Below are positions 21,069-46,185 of a DNA stretch of 46,185 bases, one piece after another; position 1 is the first letter of the stretch, and the number at the start of each line of letters is the position of its first letter. The stretch is from Cochliopodium minus. Taxonomy: Eukaryota; Discosea; Himatismenida; Cochliopodiidae. The translations under genes were made by a program, and so were the position numbers. Below the pieces are notes generated by a model. It was not told the origin of the DNA, did not search any database, and was given only the letters and a program-made list of their open reading frames with translations. The stretch covers positions 1 to 46,185 of the forward strand of contig JAMYWO010000296.1 in assembly GCA_024220525.1 (NCBI GenBank), given 5' to 3'.

Positions 21069-21511
21069 GCTAATTTTTGAAATTTAATTGTAGCTTCAAT
21101 TTCTTTGATTAAATTTATTAAAATGTTTATTTAATTAATTCCATATATAATCAAATTTGAAAAAGCCAACAAGGATCCAATCATTTTTGCCAACTCTTGT
21201 ATTCCCTCATGCTTTCATTCAATATGATGTAAGATTACTATAAATAATGTGACAAAAAATTAATACAAAATTTGAATCTTTCAAAGCTTGTTTATTAAAA
21301 AAAATCTTCATTTGAAGTTGATTAAAGAAAATGAAAAGTTTCATTCCTAAATAAATTAATTTTTGCAATCAAAACCCTATAAAACAAAAAGAAATAAGTT
21401 AATAGTACAATTAAATAGAATTCCAAACCTATCTTGTGCAAAAAGTTCTTCCTTTAAAGTATTAAGTTTAGAATGATATAAAAAATATAATTTTTATTAT
21501 TTATTCGTAAA
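21069..21511. other. Intergenic stretch between convergent genes
   Basis: 443 bases between the ends of ARL1 and the tectonin-PI3K gene, which converge. A/T-rich with several poly-A/T runs that may serve as 3'-end signals for both genes. I see no reading frame, RNA gene or repeat in it. Confidence 0.6.
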
Positions 21512-22939
21512 TTACCATTTTTTTGACCAATTTGTTGGTCCTTCCTCTATCATTTTTTTGACCTCTTCACATGCTTTTTCTTCACTTAACCCTTCGAAAA
21601 AAGCAAGTTCTTGCAAATAAGTGACAGGATTGATTTCAGGAGAAGAGTTGGAGAATAAATTTTTTGCAATTTCCATGATCATTTCTTGATGTCTCCACAA
21701 TATTCTGTATGCAATTAAACAGTTCGTAACGAAAGATTCCCAAATATTAGCTTCTATGAAACTATTCTTCATTTTTTCAGAGATGGCAAACAAATTAGGG
21801 GGATCTATCTTTGGTGAGAGTCCAAATACTATTTTTTTTTTTAAATAAATTAATGTAAAATAGAAAAAAAAAGTAAAAAAAAGAGATTGTATGGTATACC
21901 GTATCCAAAGTCAATGTGAAAAAAGATTCTGTTTTTTTTAGTAATCAACATGTTGTCTTTATGTCTGTCTCTTACACCACAAATAAAACCAGCAATGTAA
22001 CCACCAACAGCAGAAGGGAGGGTGTATTGTTCATTGACATCTTTCCATTCTTGTCCAACCAAAGATTCACTTTCATCAATGATTTCCAAGTAACCAATTC
22101 CATTCATATAAGTGGAAACAGGAACGATGGAATAAGTTTGAGCAAAAGGAAGAGCACAAGAAAAAAGGTGCATGTTTTTTTTCCAAATAGAATTGAAAAG
22201 AATGAAAAGTTTTTCAATGAAAAGATCTTGAGTTGTGTTGTCTCCTATTTTTAAAATGATCATTTTTTTCATTTTTGTGTGAGAATTGGAAAGCGAGATG
22301 AGTTTTGGTTTGGTTTTAGAGTCAAACACTTTTAAAACTTCTGCATGATTCATTTCTAAATCTGGGAAATTGGGATGAACAAAAGTAGATTGGTAGACAC
22401 CCTCTATTTTGTGAAGTTCGTTTAAAGTGAATTGATAAGAAGAATCTAGTTGATAGAAAGAATTGGGAAACATTGTTGTTAGTGCACTTTTCTGGTAGGC
22501 AGCCAAGAAATAATTAATTTTTTTATTTTTTTTGGCCAACTCGTAAAAGAAATGAACGATGCTGTGATATTTTTGAAGATTGGTTTGAATTTCAGTGATG
22601 ATGAGAGGAAATAGTTGGATGATGGAAGAAAGAGAAAATTTGTTTAAATGTCTCATTTGTAAATTGTGATCAGAAATGATAGATGCCAATTCAAACACTT
22701 GATTGTAATCTTCATTAGACACTAAATATTCTATCACTTCTAATCTCACTTTTTTATGAGATTGTACATAGTCCAGTGCACTCTTTCCTTTATTGTCTTT
22801 TAAACTTGCATCTGCTTTACTTTCTATCAACATTTGAATCATTTTCAAATCTACTTCATAGTCGCATCCCATTTCATGTAAGCATGTTTTTCCTTCTTCA
22901 TCTCTTATATTACTATCCACTCCATGCTCGATAAACATC

Positions 22940-22970
<31 letters not shown>

Positions 22971-25900
22971 CAAAAATAAAAATAAAAAAAAAGAAATATC
23001 AACAATAATAAAAAAGTGAATGAAGTAAATATTTAAATTTATAATTATTATAATTATAATTAATAAAAAATGAAAGAAAGAAATTTAATAAATCGTAAAT
23101 AGATGTAAAAATTCTCAAACAAATAGAATTAAAATAATTAAAAATAAAACAAAACAAAAAAAAAAGTAAGCAATTAAAATAATTAAAAAAAGATGAGGAA
23201 AAGAAGCAAAGTATAATGAAGAAAGAATAAAAAAGAGAAACCTGAAGGAGAGGGAAAGAAAGTTTTTTATTAGAAATGGCATGGTGAAGGGGAGTTTGAA
23301 GAAGAGAGTTGAGATTATTGGGAGAAGAACCATTGAGAAGAGACAATTTGATGCTTTCTAAATCCCCTTCCATCACCAAGGTGTGTAATGATTTTCGTGT
23401 ATTTTCTTTTCCTTCCCCTGACAATGAAAACCCTGTAGAATGATGAAGTGAAAAAAAATTACTATTATGCAATGACCCACTCTTTCTCCCTTTACTATTA
23501 TTGTTGTATCCCCCGTTACTATCATTACTTCCATTACTTCCATTACTTCCATTAGTATCATGATGTAGTTCATTGTTAGAGTGACTGTGGGAAGGATGAT
23601 GATGGGGGAGGTAGGAATTGCTATTACGAAGATGACTATTAGAATTGTAGAGGAAAATTTTTCCATCATTGGAAATTCCACAAAAGAAAGTATGAGAAAG
23701 GGAAGAGAGGAAACGAAGTGAATAAGGATTTTCTTGTTCGACGAAAGCAAGAAAAGAAGAATCCCATTTGTATATCACATTTTTCTCTGTCATTCCGTAT
23801 AATGAAGAATCTTCTTTTCCACTTGTTATTTGAATGAAACTGGGTGCCATTATCATTCTCCACCCTTCTCCCTCTCCTTCTCTCTTTCTCCTTTTTTCTC
23901 CTTTCCCACTTTCACTTCCTTCCACTCCTTCTTCTTCCTTATATGTTGGTAATTCTTCTTCCTCTTCTTCTTTATTGTCTTCATTATTTTTATTATCTTT
24001 ATTATCCTCTTTATTTTTATTGTCTTCATTATTGTCTTTATTATTTTTATTATCTTTATTATCTTTATTATTTTTATTATCTTTATTATCTTTGTTATCT
24101 TTGTTATCTTTGTTATTTTCATTTCCTTTATTATCTTTATTCATAGTGGAAAGGAGAGAAGAGAGTTGTTTATAACTTTGTAGATCATAGTTGTCATCAC
24201 GTTCAAAGAGATTACCTTTGTAATCCAAACAATAAACTTTTCCACTTCTCGTCACTTCTATTTCCACCATGTTTCCTCCTTTTTCTTTCCATTTCCATTC
24301 TAGTTTACTATCAGAAGTAGAAGAAGAAGTAGAAGAAGTAGAAGGAGAGGAGGAAGAAGAAAGAGAGGGGACAAAATCAAAAACAACACCTTGTTTAGAA
24401 ATGGCCCATATTTTCTCTTTCCCTTTTTCTCCTCCTATACTCATTCTTTTCATCTCTTTTCCTATTTCTTCCCATTCCCTTCCTTCTTCTTTTTTCATAA
24501 TCTTTCCTTCTTTCTTTTTTTTTTTAATTTGGAATAAAAATTAAATTATTAGAAAAGTAGTAAGATTAAAAAGAAAAACAATATTTTAAATTTTTTTGCA
24601 CTTTACTAATAAAAGTTTAAAAGGTTTTTTTTTAAAAAAAAAATACAGTGATGACACAAAAGAAAGAAAGTGAAGAAGCAATGTGTTTGACGTTATGTTT
24701 GAAACTGATTTCTCTCCATAGTTTGGTATCAGCATCATAAGAGAAGAGAGATTCTTTTTTAGAAATACCATACACTCTATTCTTTCTTGAAACAGATATT
24801 TGAGAAATGTTGAATGGAGATTGTGTTATGTCTTTGTATCCTGCTACCAAGGATGCATCATTTAACACATATACTCTCCCTTCTTGACAGATCCCTGATA
24901 AATAGACATCTCTTGCAGATATAAATATTATTTTGAATGGGTTGTGAATTTCTGAAAAAAAAAGAATTCAAATGAATATTTTAATAAATTTTTTTGGGAT
25001 CAATTTTATATCCCAACATAAGATACTATATAATTGATCAATGAGATCAAAATAATCACATTGTCATTTGTATATGTTGATTATTATTGATCCAATTAAC
25101 AATCATTTTTACTAACAAATTTTCATTTTGAATCTTTCATATAACAGAAATTTACCTTCCCATTTTTCACCATTCCATTTATAAAGTGAATCATATTCAT
25201 TAATTCCCCAAATATATGTCTTACTTGCAACAGAGATTTGTTTGAATTTACCTCTATTTATGTTTTGATTGATTTGTATTCAAAGAATAAATGGTTCAAT
25301 TTTAATAAAAATTCATAATTTTTTTTTTTTACCCTGGTATTGGTTTCCATTGATTCAATTCGAAGCTGTAAATATTATAATCCTCCTTAATTCCCCAAAC
25401 AGTCCCATCTTTTCCAACAGAAATATCAATAAAATTTTCTCCAAGTTTCTCCCATGCATAATCAATCTTTGAGAATACCTCATTATTACTATTCAAACAC
25501 CAAGATCTATTTCCGCTCGAAAAATGAGATACTTTCTTTTTGCAATCAAACCAACCCTTATTATCCCAAATATGTAAAGAATCATTTGGCATAATTCCAT
25601 ATGTTCCTGATGATCCACAACTAATCTAAAAAGAGATTATATTCATTGAAAATTTTTTTGAGAGAATTTAATCTGCGCCATATAATTTGGATCAATTTTT
25701 ATATCTCAACAAAAGATACTATATAATTGATCAATGAGATCCTAATAATCATATTATCATTTGTATATGTTGATTAATATTGATCCATTAACAATCATTT
25801 TTACTAACAAATTTTCATTCCTGAATTCAAAAAATAAAAATATTTTTAAAACCTTTTTTAGTTTTTCGGGTATTAATTTCCAATTCTCTCCATTCCAGAG

Positions 25901-26099
25901 AAACACTGTTTGTTGTTCATTTATTCCCCATATTTCATTTTCATTCATCATTGAGATCTGGATTTAACATTATCAAAAAAATAAGTAAAACTTTAAAATC
26001 ATTTTGAAATACGTATTTCAATCCATTTGATGGAATCTCCCTCCAAGGAGATTGGATAAATTGATTATCGCGTTTGCTTGTGAGAATAGGGCTTTGCAT
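21512..26099 (-). CDS. Tectonin-repeat / ankyrin / PI3-kinase fusion protein, ~1,170 aa
   Basis: Eight exons, all joins in frame with GT...AG introns. The N-terminal ~620 residues hold twelve tectonin-type repeats (W...I...ISVG..G.VWGI....Y.W.), for example KQISVASKTYIWGINEYD and FIDISVGKDGTVWGIKED, enough for two six-bladed propellers. A Lys-Asp-Asn tract interrupts the tenth repeat. Ankyrin repeats follow (~aa 665-800; SSPNNLNSLLQTPLHHAIS; DSNIRDEEGKTCLHEMG). The kinase domain spans ~aa 900-1168: KIGDNTTQD (usually GDDLRQD), catalytic loop GVRDRHKDNMLI and FHIDFGYG, ending in EEKACEEVKK like class I/III PI3-kinases. Catalytic D, H, N and DFG residues are present. Tectonin propellers bind microbial surfaces or act in autophagy (TECPR1/2). 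A role tying particle recognition to phosphoinositide production is my inference. I know of no described protein with this order of domains. Confidence 0.82.
22939..23252 (-). repeat. Long A/T intron of the tectonin-PI3K gene with a (TAA)n run
   Basis: This ~314-base intron, the longest in the gene, contains a TAA/TTA trinucleotide run at its acceptor end (about 22942-22969) and mixed A/T repeats. The exon junction LLQ|MFIEHG joins two halves of the ankyrin region in frame. Nothing else is seen in it. Confidence 0.7.
23955..24135 (-). repeat. Asn-Lys-Asp coding repeat inside a tectonin repeat
   Basis: Imperfect nine-base repeats encode runs of NKD/NNKD followed by a Glu run (EEEEEE). They form a flexible loop within the tenth tectonin repeat, a position where propeller proteins tolerate insertions. 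Confidence 0.8.
24997..25127. repeat. Intronic 131-base dispersed repeat, copy A
   Basis: About 90% identical to 25689-25819 and the same length. The first 97 bases are bounded by GGATCAAT and its complement ATTGATCC, like a miniature inverted-repeat element; a further ~34 bases (ACAATCATTTTTACTAACAA) are also shared. It lies in an intron of ~200 bases, while most other introns of the gene are 55-140. Confidence 0.8.
25689..25819. repeat. Intronic 131-base dispersed repeat, copy B
   Basis: Second copy of the repeat at 24997-25127, in the ~224-base intron between the first and second tectonin exon groups of the same gene. The flanking intron sequence outside the 131 bases does not match copy A, and I see no clear target-site duplication. 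Confidence 0.8.
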
Positions 26100-42412: not shown

Positions 42413-42549
42413 GTATGTTAAATATAAAAAAAGTTAAATTAAAGTTTAAAAAAATTAAATATAAATATAAATATAAATATAAATTAAATATAAATTAAAT
42501 ATAATTATAAATATAAATTAAATATAATTATAAATATAAATATAATTAN
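42413..42549. other. Low-complexity A/T tract and assembly gap
   Basis: After the transporter donor the sequence decays into AAATATAAATATAAATT-type repeats and ends with a single N at 42549. The tract is where the first contig stops. The next base opens the terminal repeat of another element, so order and orientation across the N are not supported by the sequence. Confidence 0.85.
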
Positions 42550-42735
42550 AGAAAACTGAATAAACTGTTTTTTAAAGATTTTTAAAAGTTGTCTCAATTT
42601 TTTAAAGTTGAGAAATTCTTTTACTCTGTCAAGGGTATTTATTATCTTCTTCAATTAGAATTTTTAATTTCTTCTTAAGTACAAATACAAAAGAATTTAT
42701 TATTTTTAATTAATGAAAACAATTATAAATAAATA
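42550..42735 (+). repeat. Terminal repeat copy B of the Polinton-like element
   Basis: Matches 1-186 at about 96%. The match stops sharply after the shared ATGAAAACAATTATAAAT start region, beyond which the two elements differ completely, so they are different members or differently rearranged copies. Confidence 0.85.
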
Positions 42736-44487
42736 TAAAAAAATCATACTTTCTTGAATATGAAACAAGTTTCAAAGAAGATTATAGAAAACTTTGCAAA
42801 TATAGAAATAATATTAAAGATGAAATGATCAATCATTTGTTCACTATCATCTGCCAAACCAAAGATACAATACCTTCAAAAGAAATGGAAGTGATTGAGC
42901 CATCTTGCCCAAAAATAATTTCACAAATACAAATAAATAATAATCATAGTCCTTGGTTTCCTTCTGAGAATAGTGTTGACATTAACTGATATAATCACCT
43001 TTATCGATCATGATCAAGATAAAAGAAGATCTTTTCAAATTTTTGCAAATGAAGGTTTGGAAAAAGAATTCAGGTTCCTGGCAGTCTCAGAAAAATTTCT
43101 CAGAAAAAGAGCTGATATGAAGATGGGAGAAATCATAGATTTTCTAACATTTTGCCAATACACAAAGAATATAGATTCTGAAATTAGCTGAAGAGAAAAA
43201 ATTGTTGTTCATAAAGAGGACTCTATCAAAAAGAACAAATTGATTGGTAATTCAAAGGATCAAAGAAAACTTTCAATACTGAACAAGAAATAATGGAGAT
43301 CAAAAGAATATTGGAACTTCAAAATGAATCAGCAACAAAAATGCCAACAACAACATCAATCTTTTGGCTTTTCAAATTAACTGTAACAATATAATTGATC
43401 CAATTATTTTGCGCATATTAAATTCTTACAAAAAATTTTCAATGGACTTTCTGGAACTTCTGGCATTGTTTGTATTAGTAAAAAATAGGATGAAAAATAT
43501 TTATTAAAGGAAAAGAAAGAATGGTGTATTGTCATTTATAAATGAATAGAACTAAGACCTTAATAAAACAAACTTTAATTAATGACTTTTTTACAATAAA
43601 GTGGGAAAAACTTTAAAATTTTTTTATATAGTATATATAAATAAAAAAATGGAACCAGTTAGATTGTATTTAGAAGTTAAATTCAATTTGTAAATCCACA
43701 TTATAGACCTGGTAAAGATCATGAAAGAGAATACTTTTGGAGATTAGGTAATAATAGAAGTTAGAAGAGAAGAACCTATAAATATAGATGATTTTGTCGA
43801 GAATTAGTGAAAGGAGACAAAATGTTAATGAAAATCCAGACAATTTTGACTCAACATTAAGGGTACATGGAAAAGGAGGAACAGAGAAAAAACCATCCGT
43901 ACCATTACAAGATAAAATGTTGAATTACATGAATTGTATCTATGACATTAACAAAATTGATATGTTGGGGGATTTTTCAAAGATGATGGAAGAGATTGAC
44001 AGAGTTGTTAATGAATCTGAACAACTTAAAAAAGAAAACAATGATTTGATTCCTACTGCAAAGGAAAAACAGAATATCAAATTTGTAGAGTTGAAGAAAA
44101 GGAAAAAAATCATCATTGAGCAAATGGAAAAGATAAAGAAGAATCTTGGGAAGCCAATCAGTTTTGAGGATGCAAATTCTGTCTACAAAAAGGAGTACTT
44201 TTGTGATATTAGGTATTTTAAACATAATTGGGACAAGAGAAGACAAGAAGACAGAAAGACTCAATTAACTGTTCCTGAAATTTTGATTCAATTTCAAAAA
44301 GTTGGATGGGAAGGAACAGTTGAAGAATTTTTTGATGATAAAAACCAACTGACTTTACTTTGGACATTGTAAAGAAGTGGCATCATTGTTTTGGGAAAAA
44401 ATACCAAATTTCTCTTCATATTTTTGATCCTCTTTATCAACGTATCTATTACTCTTCTGCTCATGATAAAATTACAGAAAAGGTGAA

Positions 44488-45189
44488 ATGGGAGGTATTG
44501 TATCTTATGATATCAAACATTCTTATCCTTCTGCTATCCAAACCAACAAACATGAGTATATGGTCTTTGGTATTCAAAATACTTTCGTTAATTACAATCC
44601 AGATCCCAAAATATCAAGAAATAAAGATGGATTTCTCAAGAATGCTTTCTATCTTATGGATTCTTTTACCATTGAACGTTATGGAATCTATGTTGAGAAA
44701 GAGATTATGACTGCCAATCTTGTTCAACATCTTCTTGACAAGAAATTCATCACCGAAGATAAAATCAAAGCTGTAATGTACCCAGATGATTTTATACCTT
44801 ACCAAAAAACAAATGGAAAGGGTGATTTGAATAGGATTGTTGATTTGATTTATGGAATGTTTCCAAATGAAGATAGAGAGAAATCAGAGGATTTTTTTGT
44901 TAGAAAGCAACTTCTCAATTCTTGGATTGGTAATTTTGGAAAGAAATATGATTCAAAAGATAAAGGATGTATTACCAACAATCTCAACTACATTTTCTAT
45001 CTTAATGATGAATTCAACAAGAAAAAAGTTGAAAACAAATTGCAGAAAACAAATTTTGATTGGGTGGACATTAATGGCAACTTTTTTGTTAGACTTGGGG
45101 AAAAAACAAGGATTGAAGAAGACCATTCTCCCATAAATACTCAAATCCTAGGAAATGTGAAGAAAAGAAAACTTTCTTATCATGCTTGA
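44488..45189 (+). pseudogene. DNA polymerase B fragment of the element
   Basis: A 233-codon fragment. YDIKHSYPSAI near residue 7 fits polymerase B motif A (DxxSLYPS), and KQLLNSWIGNFGKK near residue 145 fits motif B (KxxxNSxYGxxG). The ~135 residues between them leave room for the TPR insertions of protein-primed polymerases. Motif C is not in this fragment. It is treated as a fossil part of the element. Confidence 0.55.
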
Positions 45190-46185
45190 TCTTGTTTGGA
45201 AGGAAGGGAAATCAAAACTTATCTTACAACACTGAAACTGTTTTTGTTTTGGATGGAAACAAGCTAACTGATGGGAAAGATATTGTCAAAGAAGAAATTA
45301 AAATGTTGAAAAACAAGTAATCATTGTTGATGGAAAAGAAAAATATCTCCTCCATTAATCCCAAAAAATCCAGTTCCAATTGTGAGGTGAAAACAGAAAC
45401 CTACAGAATTTATTGAACAAAACAAAGTTGGCAAGTTTCTCCCAGATACCAAAAAAGAAAAGATTAACCAAAAACCCAATTTCATACGAAAAAAGATTGA
45501 CTTGAAGAAAAACAAAGAGAAAAATTTTGTTGAGAAAATCACAAAACAGAAAACCAATACAATCCTCAATCTGGAAATGGGTTTTCAAATTAGAAATGAA
45601 GAGGTGTCTTCCATTAGATATAACAAACCAATCAAGAGAGAGGGATGCTTTTGAATCTGACTACAACATTCCAGAGTTTGTTGAGCTACCTGATGTTACA
45701 TTTGATGGGTTACCTGAACCAAAGATTTTATTTAACAAAATAGAAATTGATGATGGGTTGAGAACTTGCAAAACTTCTGAATTCATCTTTCTTCTGTACT
45801 GGATCTGGAGGTTCAAAAAGTCAACACTGTTAAAGTCTTTTCATGATGAACAATTTGGATTCAGTACAGATGATATTTGGTTCTTTCTCCAACAAACAAA
45901 GCAGCCAATCTTTTGAAAGACAAATGTAAGCATGTTTACACCTTTGCAAAAATTCTTTGGTATGAAGGATGTTGGCGACATTGATGAGAGGAACGATGAA
46001 GGATGAAAAGTTTGTTCAAAAAAATCTTGGTATTATTGATGATGAATACAAGATGATTGTCCAAGTTAATGAATTCTCAATGGTATCTGAATATTATTTC
46101 AAAAGTTGTTGAAAGAGGTTCAAAGAAGGAAAGATAAAGGGAACAAACTTATTGTCCAAATCTATGGAGACAAAAACCAATGTGA

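What the first reader, a model, noticed from the sequence alone, without database searches (positions are those of the whole stretch)
21512..26099. Tectonin-ankyrin-PI3-kinase fusion: a possible recognition-to-lipid-signal protein
Twelve tectonin repeats (two six-blade propellers), ankyrin repeats and a PI3-kinase catalytic domain with intact catalytic residues lie in one gene. Frame is kept at every intron, including the two that bridge the domain borders. Tectonin propellers bind bacterial surfaces (tectonins, tachylectin-1) or work in autophagosome maturation (TECPR1/2), while PI3-kinases mark phagosomes and autophagosomes. One protein doing both would skip the usual receptor-adaptor chain. 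The nucleotide-binding loop (GDNTTQD for GDDLRQD) is atypical, so substrate class is open. I know of no described protein with this order.
Basis: partly seen in the sequence, partly recalled or inferred. Interest (0 to 1): 0.85.

Follow-up and report, generated by a model that had tools for sequence, protein, structure and literature searches.

The report
Tectonin–ankyrin–lipid kinase fusion protein
A protist gene joins a tectonin "recognition" module, ankyrin repeats and a lipid-kinase domain most like the membrane-marking enzyme Vps34 in one protein, so that the part that finds a target may also label the membrane there; the architecture looks real, but what it recognises is unknown.

Summary
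One minus-strand gene (26099-21512, 8 exons, 1171 aa) encodes tectonin repeats (Pfam 8.7e-43), ankyrin repeats (1.9e-13) and a PI3/PI4-kinase domain (1.4e-15). Exon 6 carries tectonin and ankyrin sequence in one frame, exon 7 ankyrin and kinase, and the exon 6/7 splice rebuilds an ankyrin repeat of its neighbour's length (35 aa). Two genes are very unlikely. Twelve blades can be placed by hand: four seeded a profile, three more are supported by it, five rest on register. Two six-bladed propellers were not shown.

Among solved structures the kinase is closest to Vps34 (class III). It keeps the ATP lysine, DRH..N, DFG and, at K1073, the counterpart of K771 in Vps34's substrate-binding activation loop. 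No C2 or helical domain was found, so it is not a Vps34 orthologue. Best reading: a PI3P-making enzyme steered by its own tectonin/ankyrin half. Bacterial recognition is weak: the Asn+Tyr pair of tectonin 2 (6 of 6 blades) survives in 1 of 12. Four literature searches aimed at this architecture listed no such protein, but their listings were capped and no eukaryotic proteome could be searched.

The parts
25853..26099 (-). Exons 1-2 (26099-26013, 25957-25853): start codon, tectonin blade 1 and first part of blade 2; aa 1-64
25156..25625 (-). Exons 3-4 (25625-25333, 25253-25156): rest of blade 2, blades 3-5, start of blade 6; aa 65-194
24647..24951 (-). Exon 5: rest of blade 6, blade 7 and most of blade 8; ends at aa 296
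23242..24513 (-). Exon 6, one open frame: end of blade 8, blades 9-12 with a long Asn/Asp/Lys-rich insert, Asn/Gly/Ser-rich linker, ankyrin repeat 1 and first part of repeat 2; aa 297-720
22939..23241 (-). Intron 6 (303 nt, 12.9% GC); its removal rebuilds a 35-aa ankyrin repeat
21900..22938 (-). Exon 7, one open frame: rest of ankyrin repeat 2, later repeats, helical-looking linker, kinase N-lobe and C-lobe through the DFG motif; aa 721-1066
21512..21828 (-). Exon 8: rest of the activation loop (VFGLSPK...) and end of the kinase C-lobe, stop
21369..21451 (-). Candidate alternative 3' end (not shown): donor after 21516, acceptor before 21451, adding KNFLHKIG, and after a second intron (21428-21377) a terminal F and stop; would give a PI3K-like C-terminal helix motif
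   Evidence: short tail alone found no PI3K

Best explanation
A single cytosolic protein in which an N-terminal tectonin module and ankyrin repeats carry a class III-like phosphatidylinositol 3-kinase domain. Shown: one gene model with this domain order, conserved catalytic residues, closest similarity to Vps34 among solved structures, no detectable C2 or helical domain. Inferred: the propeller/ankyrin half binds a ligand or partner on an endolysosomal or phagosomal membrane and holds the kinase there, doing the job that Vps15/Beclin-type subunits do for Vps34; the kinase then makes PI3P locally, which recruits FYVE/PX-type proteins. Whether the ligand is a host membrane component, an exposed luminal glycan or a bacterial surface is open; I favour a host endolysosomal membrane or partner.
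For: Architecture. Class: whole kinase region, best PDB chain is yeast Vps34 (67.7 bits, 1e-17), then human Vps34 (about 56), fly (52.5), p110beta (50.6), p110gamma (about 43), mTOR (about 42); C-lobe alone, Vps34 59-51 bits against p110beta 42; 32% identity to the aligned yeast Vps34 segment. Activation loop DFGYVFGLSPKIDPP against DFGYILGRDPKPLPP, with K1073 at the place of human K771 (the mapping uses D761 and K771 as numbered in PMC6358306). [quoted passage not shown] a fused targeting module would make sense. [quoted passage not shown] No signal-peptide-like or transmembrane stretch.
Against: The N-lobe is weakly matched (Pfam 0.0048 on a fragment), with GDNTTQD where Vps34 has GDDLRQD, and the catalytic loop reads GVRDRH instead of GVGDRH. 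The simplest gene model ends before most of the C-terminal helix that PMC6358306 calls essential for VPS34 activity. No relative was found in 3 viral-contig scans, 1 genome-contig scan and 1 phage search, so conservation of the architecture is untested. In TECPR1 the damage sensor is the dysferlin domain, not the propeller. No ligand evidence and no expression evidence.
Confidence: 0.45

Rival explanations
1. Pseudokinase or scaffold: the PI3K fold is kept for binding but no longer phosphorylates lipid.
For: GDNTTQD for GDDLRQD, GVRDRH for GVGDRH, weak N-lobe match, C-terminal helix mostly absent in the simplest model.
Against: The ATP lysine, DRH..N, DFG and the activation-loop lysine are all kept; drift would be expected to hit these.
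Confidence: 0.2
2. Kinase of another class: a PI 4-kinase or a PIKK-like protein kinase rather than a PI 3-kinase.
For: A basic residue before DRH (GVRDRH) recalls PI4K-beta QVKDRH; mTOR scores about 42 bits.
Against: No PI4K among the 60 chain sequences shown of 147 at E<=1 (the other 87 were not seen) or among the 16 at E<=1e-9 for the C-lobe, where Vps34 leads p110beta by about 9-17 bits; loop matches Vps34 without gaps.
Confidence: 0.13
3. Direct bacterial receptor: the propellers bind bacterial glycans on bacteria free in the cytosol or in broken vacuoles, and the kinase marks them for autophagy.
For: The only two solved relatives of the propeller at E<=0.1 are the glycan-binding tectonin 2 (2.6e-23) and fish-egg lectin (9.3e-8); tectonin 2 recognises O-methylated glycans (PMC6359319, passages).
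Against: Asn216/Tyr222-type contacts: 6 of 6 tectonin 2 blades, 1 of 12 here; protein looks cytosolic.
Confidence: 0.12
4. Two genes, or an assembly or splicing artefact, joined on paper.
For: Intron 6 is the longest (303 nt), has an unusual AATAAAAAAG end, and exon 7 begins with ATG.
Against: Exon 6 alone holds tectonin and ankyrin, exon 7 alone holds ankyrin and kinase; of 25 GT..AG combinations 6 stay open in frame and only 2 give a near-canonical repeat (31 and 35 aa), 35 being the length of the next repeat; the only N of the window is at 42549, far away.
Confidence: 0.04

Closest known systems
Vps34 / PIK3C3 (class III PI 3-kinase)
   Same: Best-scoring solved relatives of the kinase; same activation-loop pattern including the lysine at K771; DRH..N and DFG.
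   Different: No C2 or helical domain found; carries tectonin and ankyrin repeats; altered GDDLRQD loop; C-terminal helix shortened in the simplest model.
TECPR1 (tectonin beta-propeller repeat protein)
   Same: Tectonin repeats in an intracellular protein linked to PI3P and phagosome/lysosome membranes (PMC4748040, PMC10481663, passages).
   Different: TECPR1 has dysferlin and PH domains; neither was among the Pfam families found here. That it has no kinase domain is recalled.
Tectonin 2 of Laccaria bicolor (5fsb)
   Same: Same repeat; six-bladed propeller in the solved lectin (PMC6359319, passages).
   Different: A stand-alone lectin of 227 residues in the PDB chain; its Asn+Tyr sugar contacts are mostly lost here.
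[quoted passage not shown] its ankyrin repeats are recalled and come from no call.
   Different: Bacterial injected effector; no tectonin part that I know of (recalled). Sequence not fetched or compared.
[quoted passage not shown]
   Same: Precedent for a receptor fused to a phosphoinositide kinase, with a role in phagocytosis according to the title cited in PMC3823935 (passages).
   Different: GPCR and PIP-kinase type, not tectonin and PI3K type.

Membership tests
Tectonin-domain proteins (PF19193) | Profile match above Pfam's gathering score | tested here: met
   146.7 bits against cut-off 30
Tectonin-domain proteins (PF19193) | Closed six-bladed propeller(s) | tested here: inconclusive
   7 of 12 blades supported by profile including 4 seeds, rest by register; no structure model of this part was made
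Ankyrin-repeat proteins | Tandem ankyrin repeats above cut-off | tested here: met
   Ank_2 51.2 bits against 27.3
PI3/PI4-kinase catalytic superfamily (PF00454) | Profile match and catalytic K, DRH..N, DFG | tested here: met
   58.3 bits against 27.1; residues
Class III PI 3-kinase (Vps34 orthologue) | Kinase domain closest to class III | tested here: met
   only PDB sequences compared, no tree
Class III PI 3-kinase (Vps34 orthologue) | N-terminal C2 and helical domains | tested here: not met
   Neither domain in the Pfam scan of the whole protein at E<=1 or of six fragments at E<=10
Class III PI 3-kinase (Vps34 orthologue) | C-terminal helix needed for activity | tested here: inconclusive
   Short in the simplest model; candidate extra exon
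Class III PI 3-kinase (Vps34 orthologue) | Makes PI3P; works with Vps15 | not testable with these tools
   Needs biochemistry
TECPR1 orthologue | Dysferlin and PH domains | tested here: not met
   Not among the 9 Pfam families found at E<=1

The most novel reading that the evidence does not exclude
A one-polypeptide recognition-to-lipid-signal sensor: tectonin propellers detect an exposed glycan or lipid on damaged or bacterium-bearing vacuoles and the attached class III-like kinase writes PI3P on that membrane itself, without Vps15/Beclin. If the ankyrin-plus-class-III layout is common in amoebae, it could also be the kind of host gene from which a bacterial class III-like kinase effector was drawn.
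Probability: 0.15. Interest if true: 0.8.

Novelty: new variant of a known kind. Interest (0 to 1): 0.5.

Why it matters
Vps34 depends on partner subunits to find and act on membranes (PMC6358306 abstract and passages, PMC8624279 passages). A natural protein that joins a Vps34-like catalytic domain to its own recognition module would be a minimal, testable case of targeting and PI3P writing in one chain, and a candidate tool for placing PI3P on chosen membranes.

Tried and rejected
Two-gene reading: rejected. Relatives: viral contigs with the kinase alignment, exon 7 and exon 3 (106, 31 and 2 pattern matches, 0 confirmed), genome contigs with exon 3 only (17 pattern matches, 0 confirmed), phages with exon 7 (none). 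These collections are viral, prokaryotic and phage, so the misses say little about protists. No genome is held for the window. Structure of exon 7 from a single sequence: mean pLDDT 39.2, not used for a fold search. tRNA and Rfam scans: 0 hits each, so no help with the organism, which stays unidentified. C-terminal extension: the two p110beta chains rise from 42.2 to 43.8 and from 42.1 to 43.3 bits, Vps34 chains change by at most about 0.2; 1 of 13 possible tails carries the motif, the pattern being my own after the p110 end; the 40-aa tail alone finds no PI3K among 10 hits. Kept as a candidate only. Blade positions were placed by hand; the shuffle control covers the profile hits only. Only one sugar site of tectonin 2 is described in the passages read; that the same Asn and Tyr serve in all six blades is my inference, its Ser200 and Trp3 were not scored.
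Full report
What is there. On the minus strand, 26099-21512, eight exons with GT..AG introns join in frame to a 1171-residue protein. An in-frame stop precedes the ATG. Exon GC is 30-39%, intron GC 13-20%. Codon use of the part before and the part after residue 720 correlates at 0.84; the gene against two neighbouring ORFs gives 0.76 and 0.81, and these two against each other 0.80. The neighbourhood is eukaryotic: Arf family, a class II tRNA synthetase, SNF2, PARP and XMAP215-type domains, and a weak, sub-threshold SAPS match in the next ORF upstream (0.0027). The organism could not be identified.

Domains. Pfam finds Tectonin (8.7e-43), Ank_2 (1.9e-13) and PI3_PI4_kinase (1.4e-15) among 9 families at E<=1; the other six are four further ankyrin models and two below their cut-offs. 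Fragment scans show tectonin sequence in each of three successive pieces of the N-terminal half, the last (aa 364-595) at 29.7 bits, just under the cut-off of 30. Twelve blades can be laid out by hand. A profile from blades 1, 2, 4 and 5 supports blades 7, 9 and 11 (0 of 1000 shuffles reach 5.5 bits); blades 6 and 10 are in the range of chance, 12 is below zero, 3 and 8 are not found. In 11 of 12 hand-placed blades the two core motifs are 8 residues apart. In a six-frame scan with the same profile the best hit outside the gene scores 0.2 bits, and an opposite-strand hit inside it 0.9.

One gene. Exon 6 alone contains tectonin blades 9-12 and ankyrin repeat 1, exon 7 alone ankyrin repeats and the kinase up to DFG. 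The exon 6/7 junction lies at residue 720/721 inside ankyrin repeat 2, and the Pfam single-repeat model matches across it (702-733). Of 25 GT..AG combinations between the two motif anchors, 6 stay in frame without a stop, and two give repeats of 31 and 35 residues; with the 35-residue choice, repeats 2 (703-737) and 3 (738-772) are equally long. The other junctions fall inside blades or, for exon 7/8, inside the activation loop.

Kinase class. Against all PDB chains the kinase region matches yeast Vps34 best (67.7 bits), then human Vps34 (about 56), fly (52.5), p110beta (50.6), p110gamma (about 43) and mTOR (about 42); 147 chain sequences pass E<=1, of which 60 were shown and none of these is a PI4K. 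The C-lobe alone gives 16 sequences at E<=1e-9: 14 class III and 2 p110beta. The activation loop aligns with Vps34 without gaps, and the lysine ten residues after the DFG aspartate (K1073) matches human K771, which lies in the activation loop that binds PI and whose acetylation lowers substrate affinity (PMC6358306, passages). Class III substrate use (PI to PI3P) is thus the best guess. Against it stand GDNTTQD, GVRDRH and the weak N-lobe. No C2 or helical domain was found, so this is not a Vps34 orthologue.

The 3' end. The simplest model stops soon after the last aligned helix. A donor after 21516 and an acceptor before 21451 would add KNFLHKIG and, after a second intron, end with F. The added tail resembles the end of class I PI3Ks (p110-alpha end as) in one of 13 possible tails and adds 1.2-1.6 bits for p110beta but nothing for Vps34; the tail alone finds no PI3K. 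It is a lead only.

Recognition. The only solved propellers matched at E<=0.1 are tectonin 2 (2.6e-23) and fish-egg lectin (9.3e-8). In one tectonin 2 site the sugar is held by Ser200, Asn216 and Tyr222, with Trp3 and Tyr222 stacking (PMC6359319, passages). The Asn+Tyr pair is present in 6 of 6 tectonin 2 blades and in 1 of 12 here. So a tectonin 2-type methyl-sugar lectin is unlikely. In TECPR1 it is the dysferlin domain, not the propeller, that brings the protein to damaged lysosomes, through sphingomyelin, while deleting the propeller repeats disturbs resting lysosomal localisation (PMC10481663, passages). I therefore favour a host endolysosomal membrane or partner as the target, with bacterial surfaces as a rival.

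Mechanism. VPS34 works within larger assemblies (PMC6358306, abstract in the listing); the isolated subunit lacks the membrane arm and was inactive on vesicles with 10% PS, though high PS could activate it (PMC8624279, passages). In the present protein the tectonin/ankyrin half could be that arm. Shown: the joined architecture and conserved catalytic residues. Inferred: recruitment, PI3P production, location.

Novelty. Ten full-text searches were made. Those aimed at the architecture (11, 12, 37, 58) listed 20 of 61, 20 of 2,395, 15 of 65 and 15 of 120 papers; no listed title or abstract start describes such a protein. I read listings, and passages of seven papers, not whole texts. In the ciliate phosphoinositide kinome paper 'tectonin' does not occur and 'ankyrin' occurs only with PH-domain kinases (PMC3823935, passages). 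No eukaryotic proteome was searchable, so absence elsewhere is not shown. Odd domain fusions are common in protists (general knowledge), which tempers the surprise.

Noticed in passing
25626-25852 and 24952-25155: Introns 2 and 4 of the gene share a 135-nt segment at 92.6% identity; within it GGATCAAT..ATTGATCC look like inverted ends of a small element (by eye). A 54-nt piece of intron 2's flank recurs at 43393-43444 (87%).
   Followed up: partly
26012 and 25852: Introns 1 and 2 both interrupt their blades in phase 0 directly before the 'IS' of the tectonin motif (aa 29/30 and 64/65), as if blade and intron had been duplicated together.
   Followed up: no
1-136 and 42550-42685: A 136-nt stretch at the window start recurs at 97% right after the window's only N (42549), which suggests a repeat element at a contig join.
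   Followed up: partly
43788-45913: Several unassigned, apparently frame-broken ORFs; one has a DIKHSYPSA motif that recalls family B DNA polymerases (recalled), but Pfam gave nothing significant for the four ORFs scanned. Possibly a decayed mobile element.
   Followed up: no
23960-24150: A nine-base-period repeat coding for an Asn/Asp/Lys-rich insert between blades 10 and 11.
   Followed up: no
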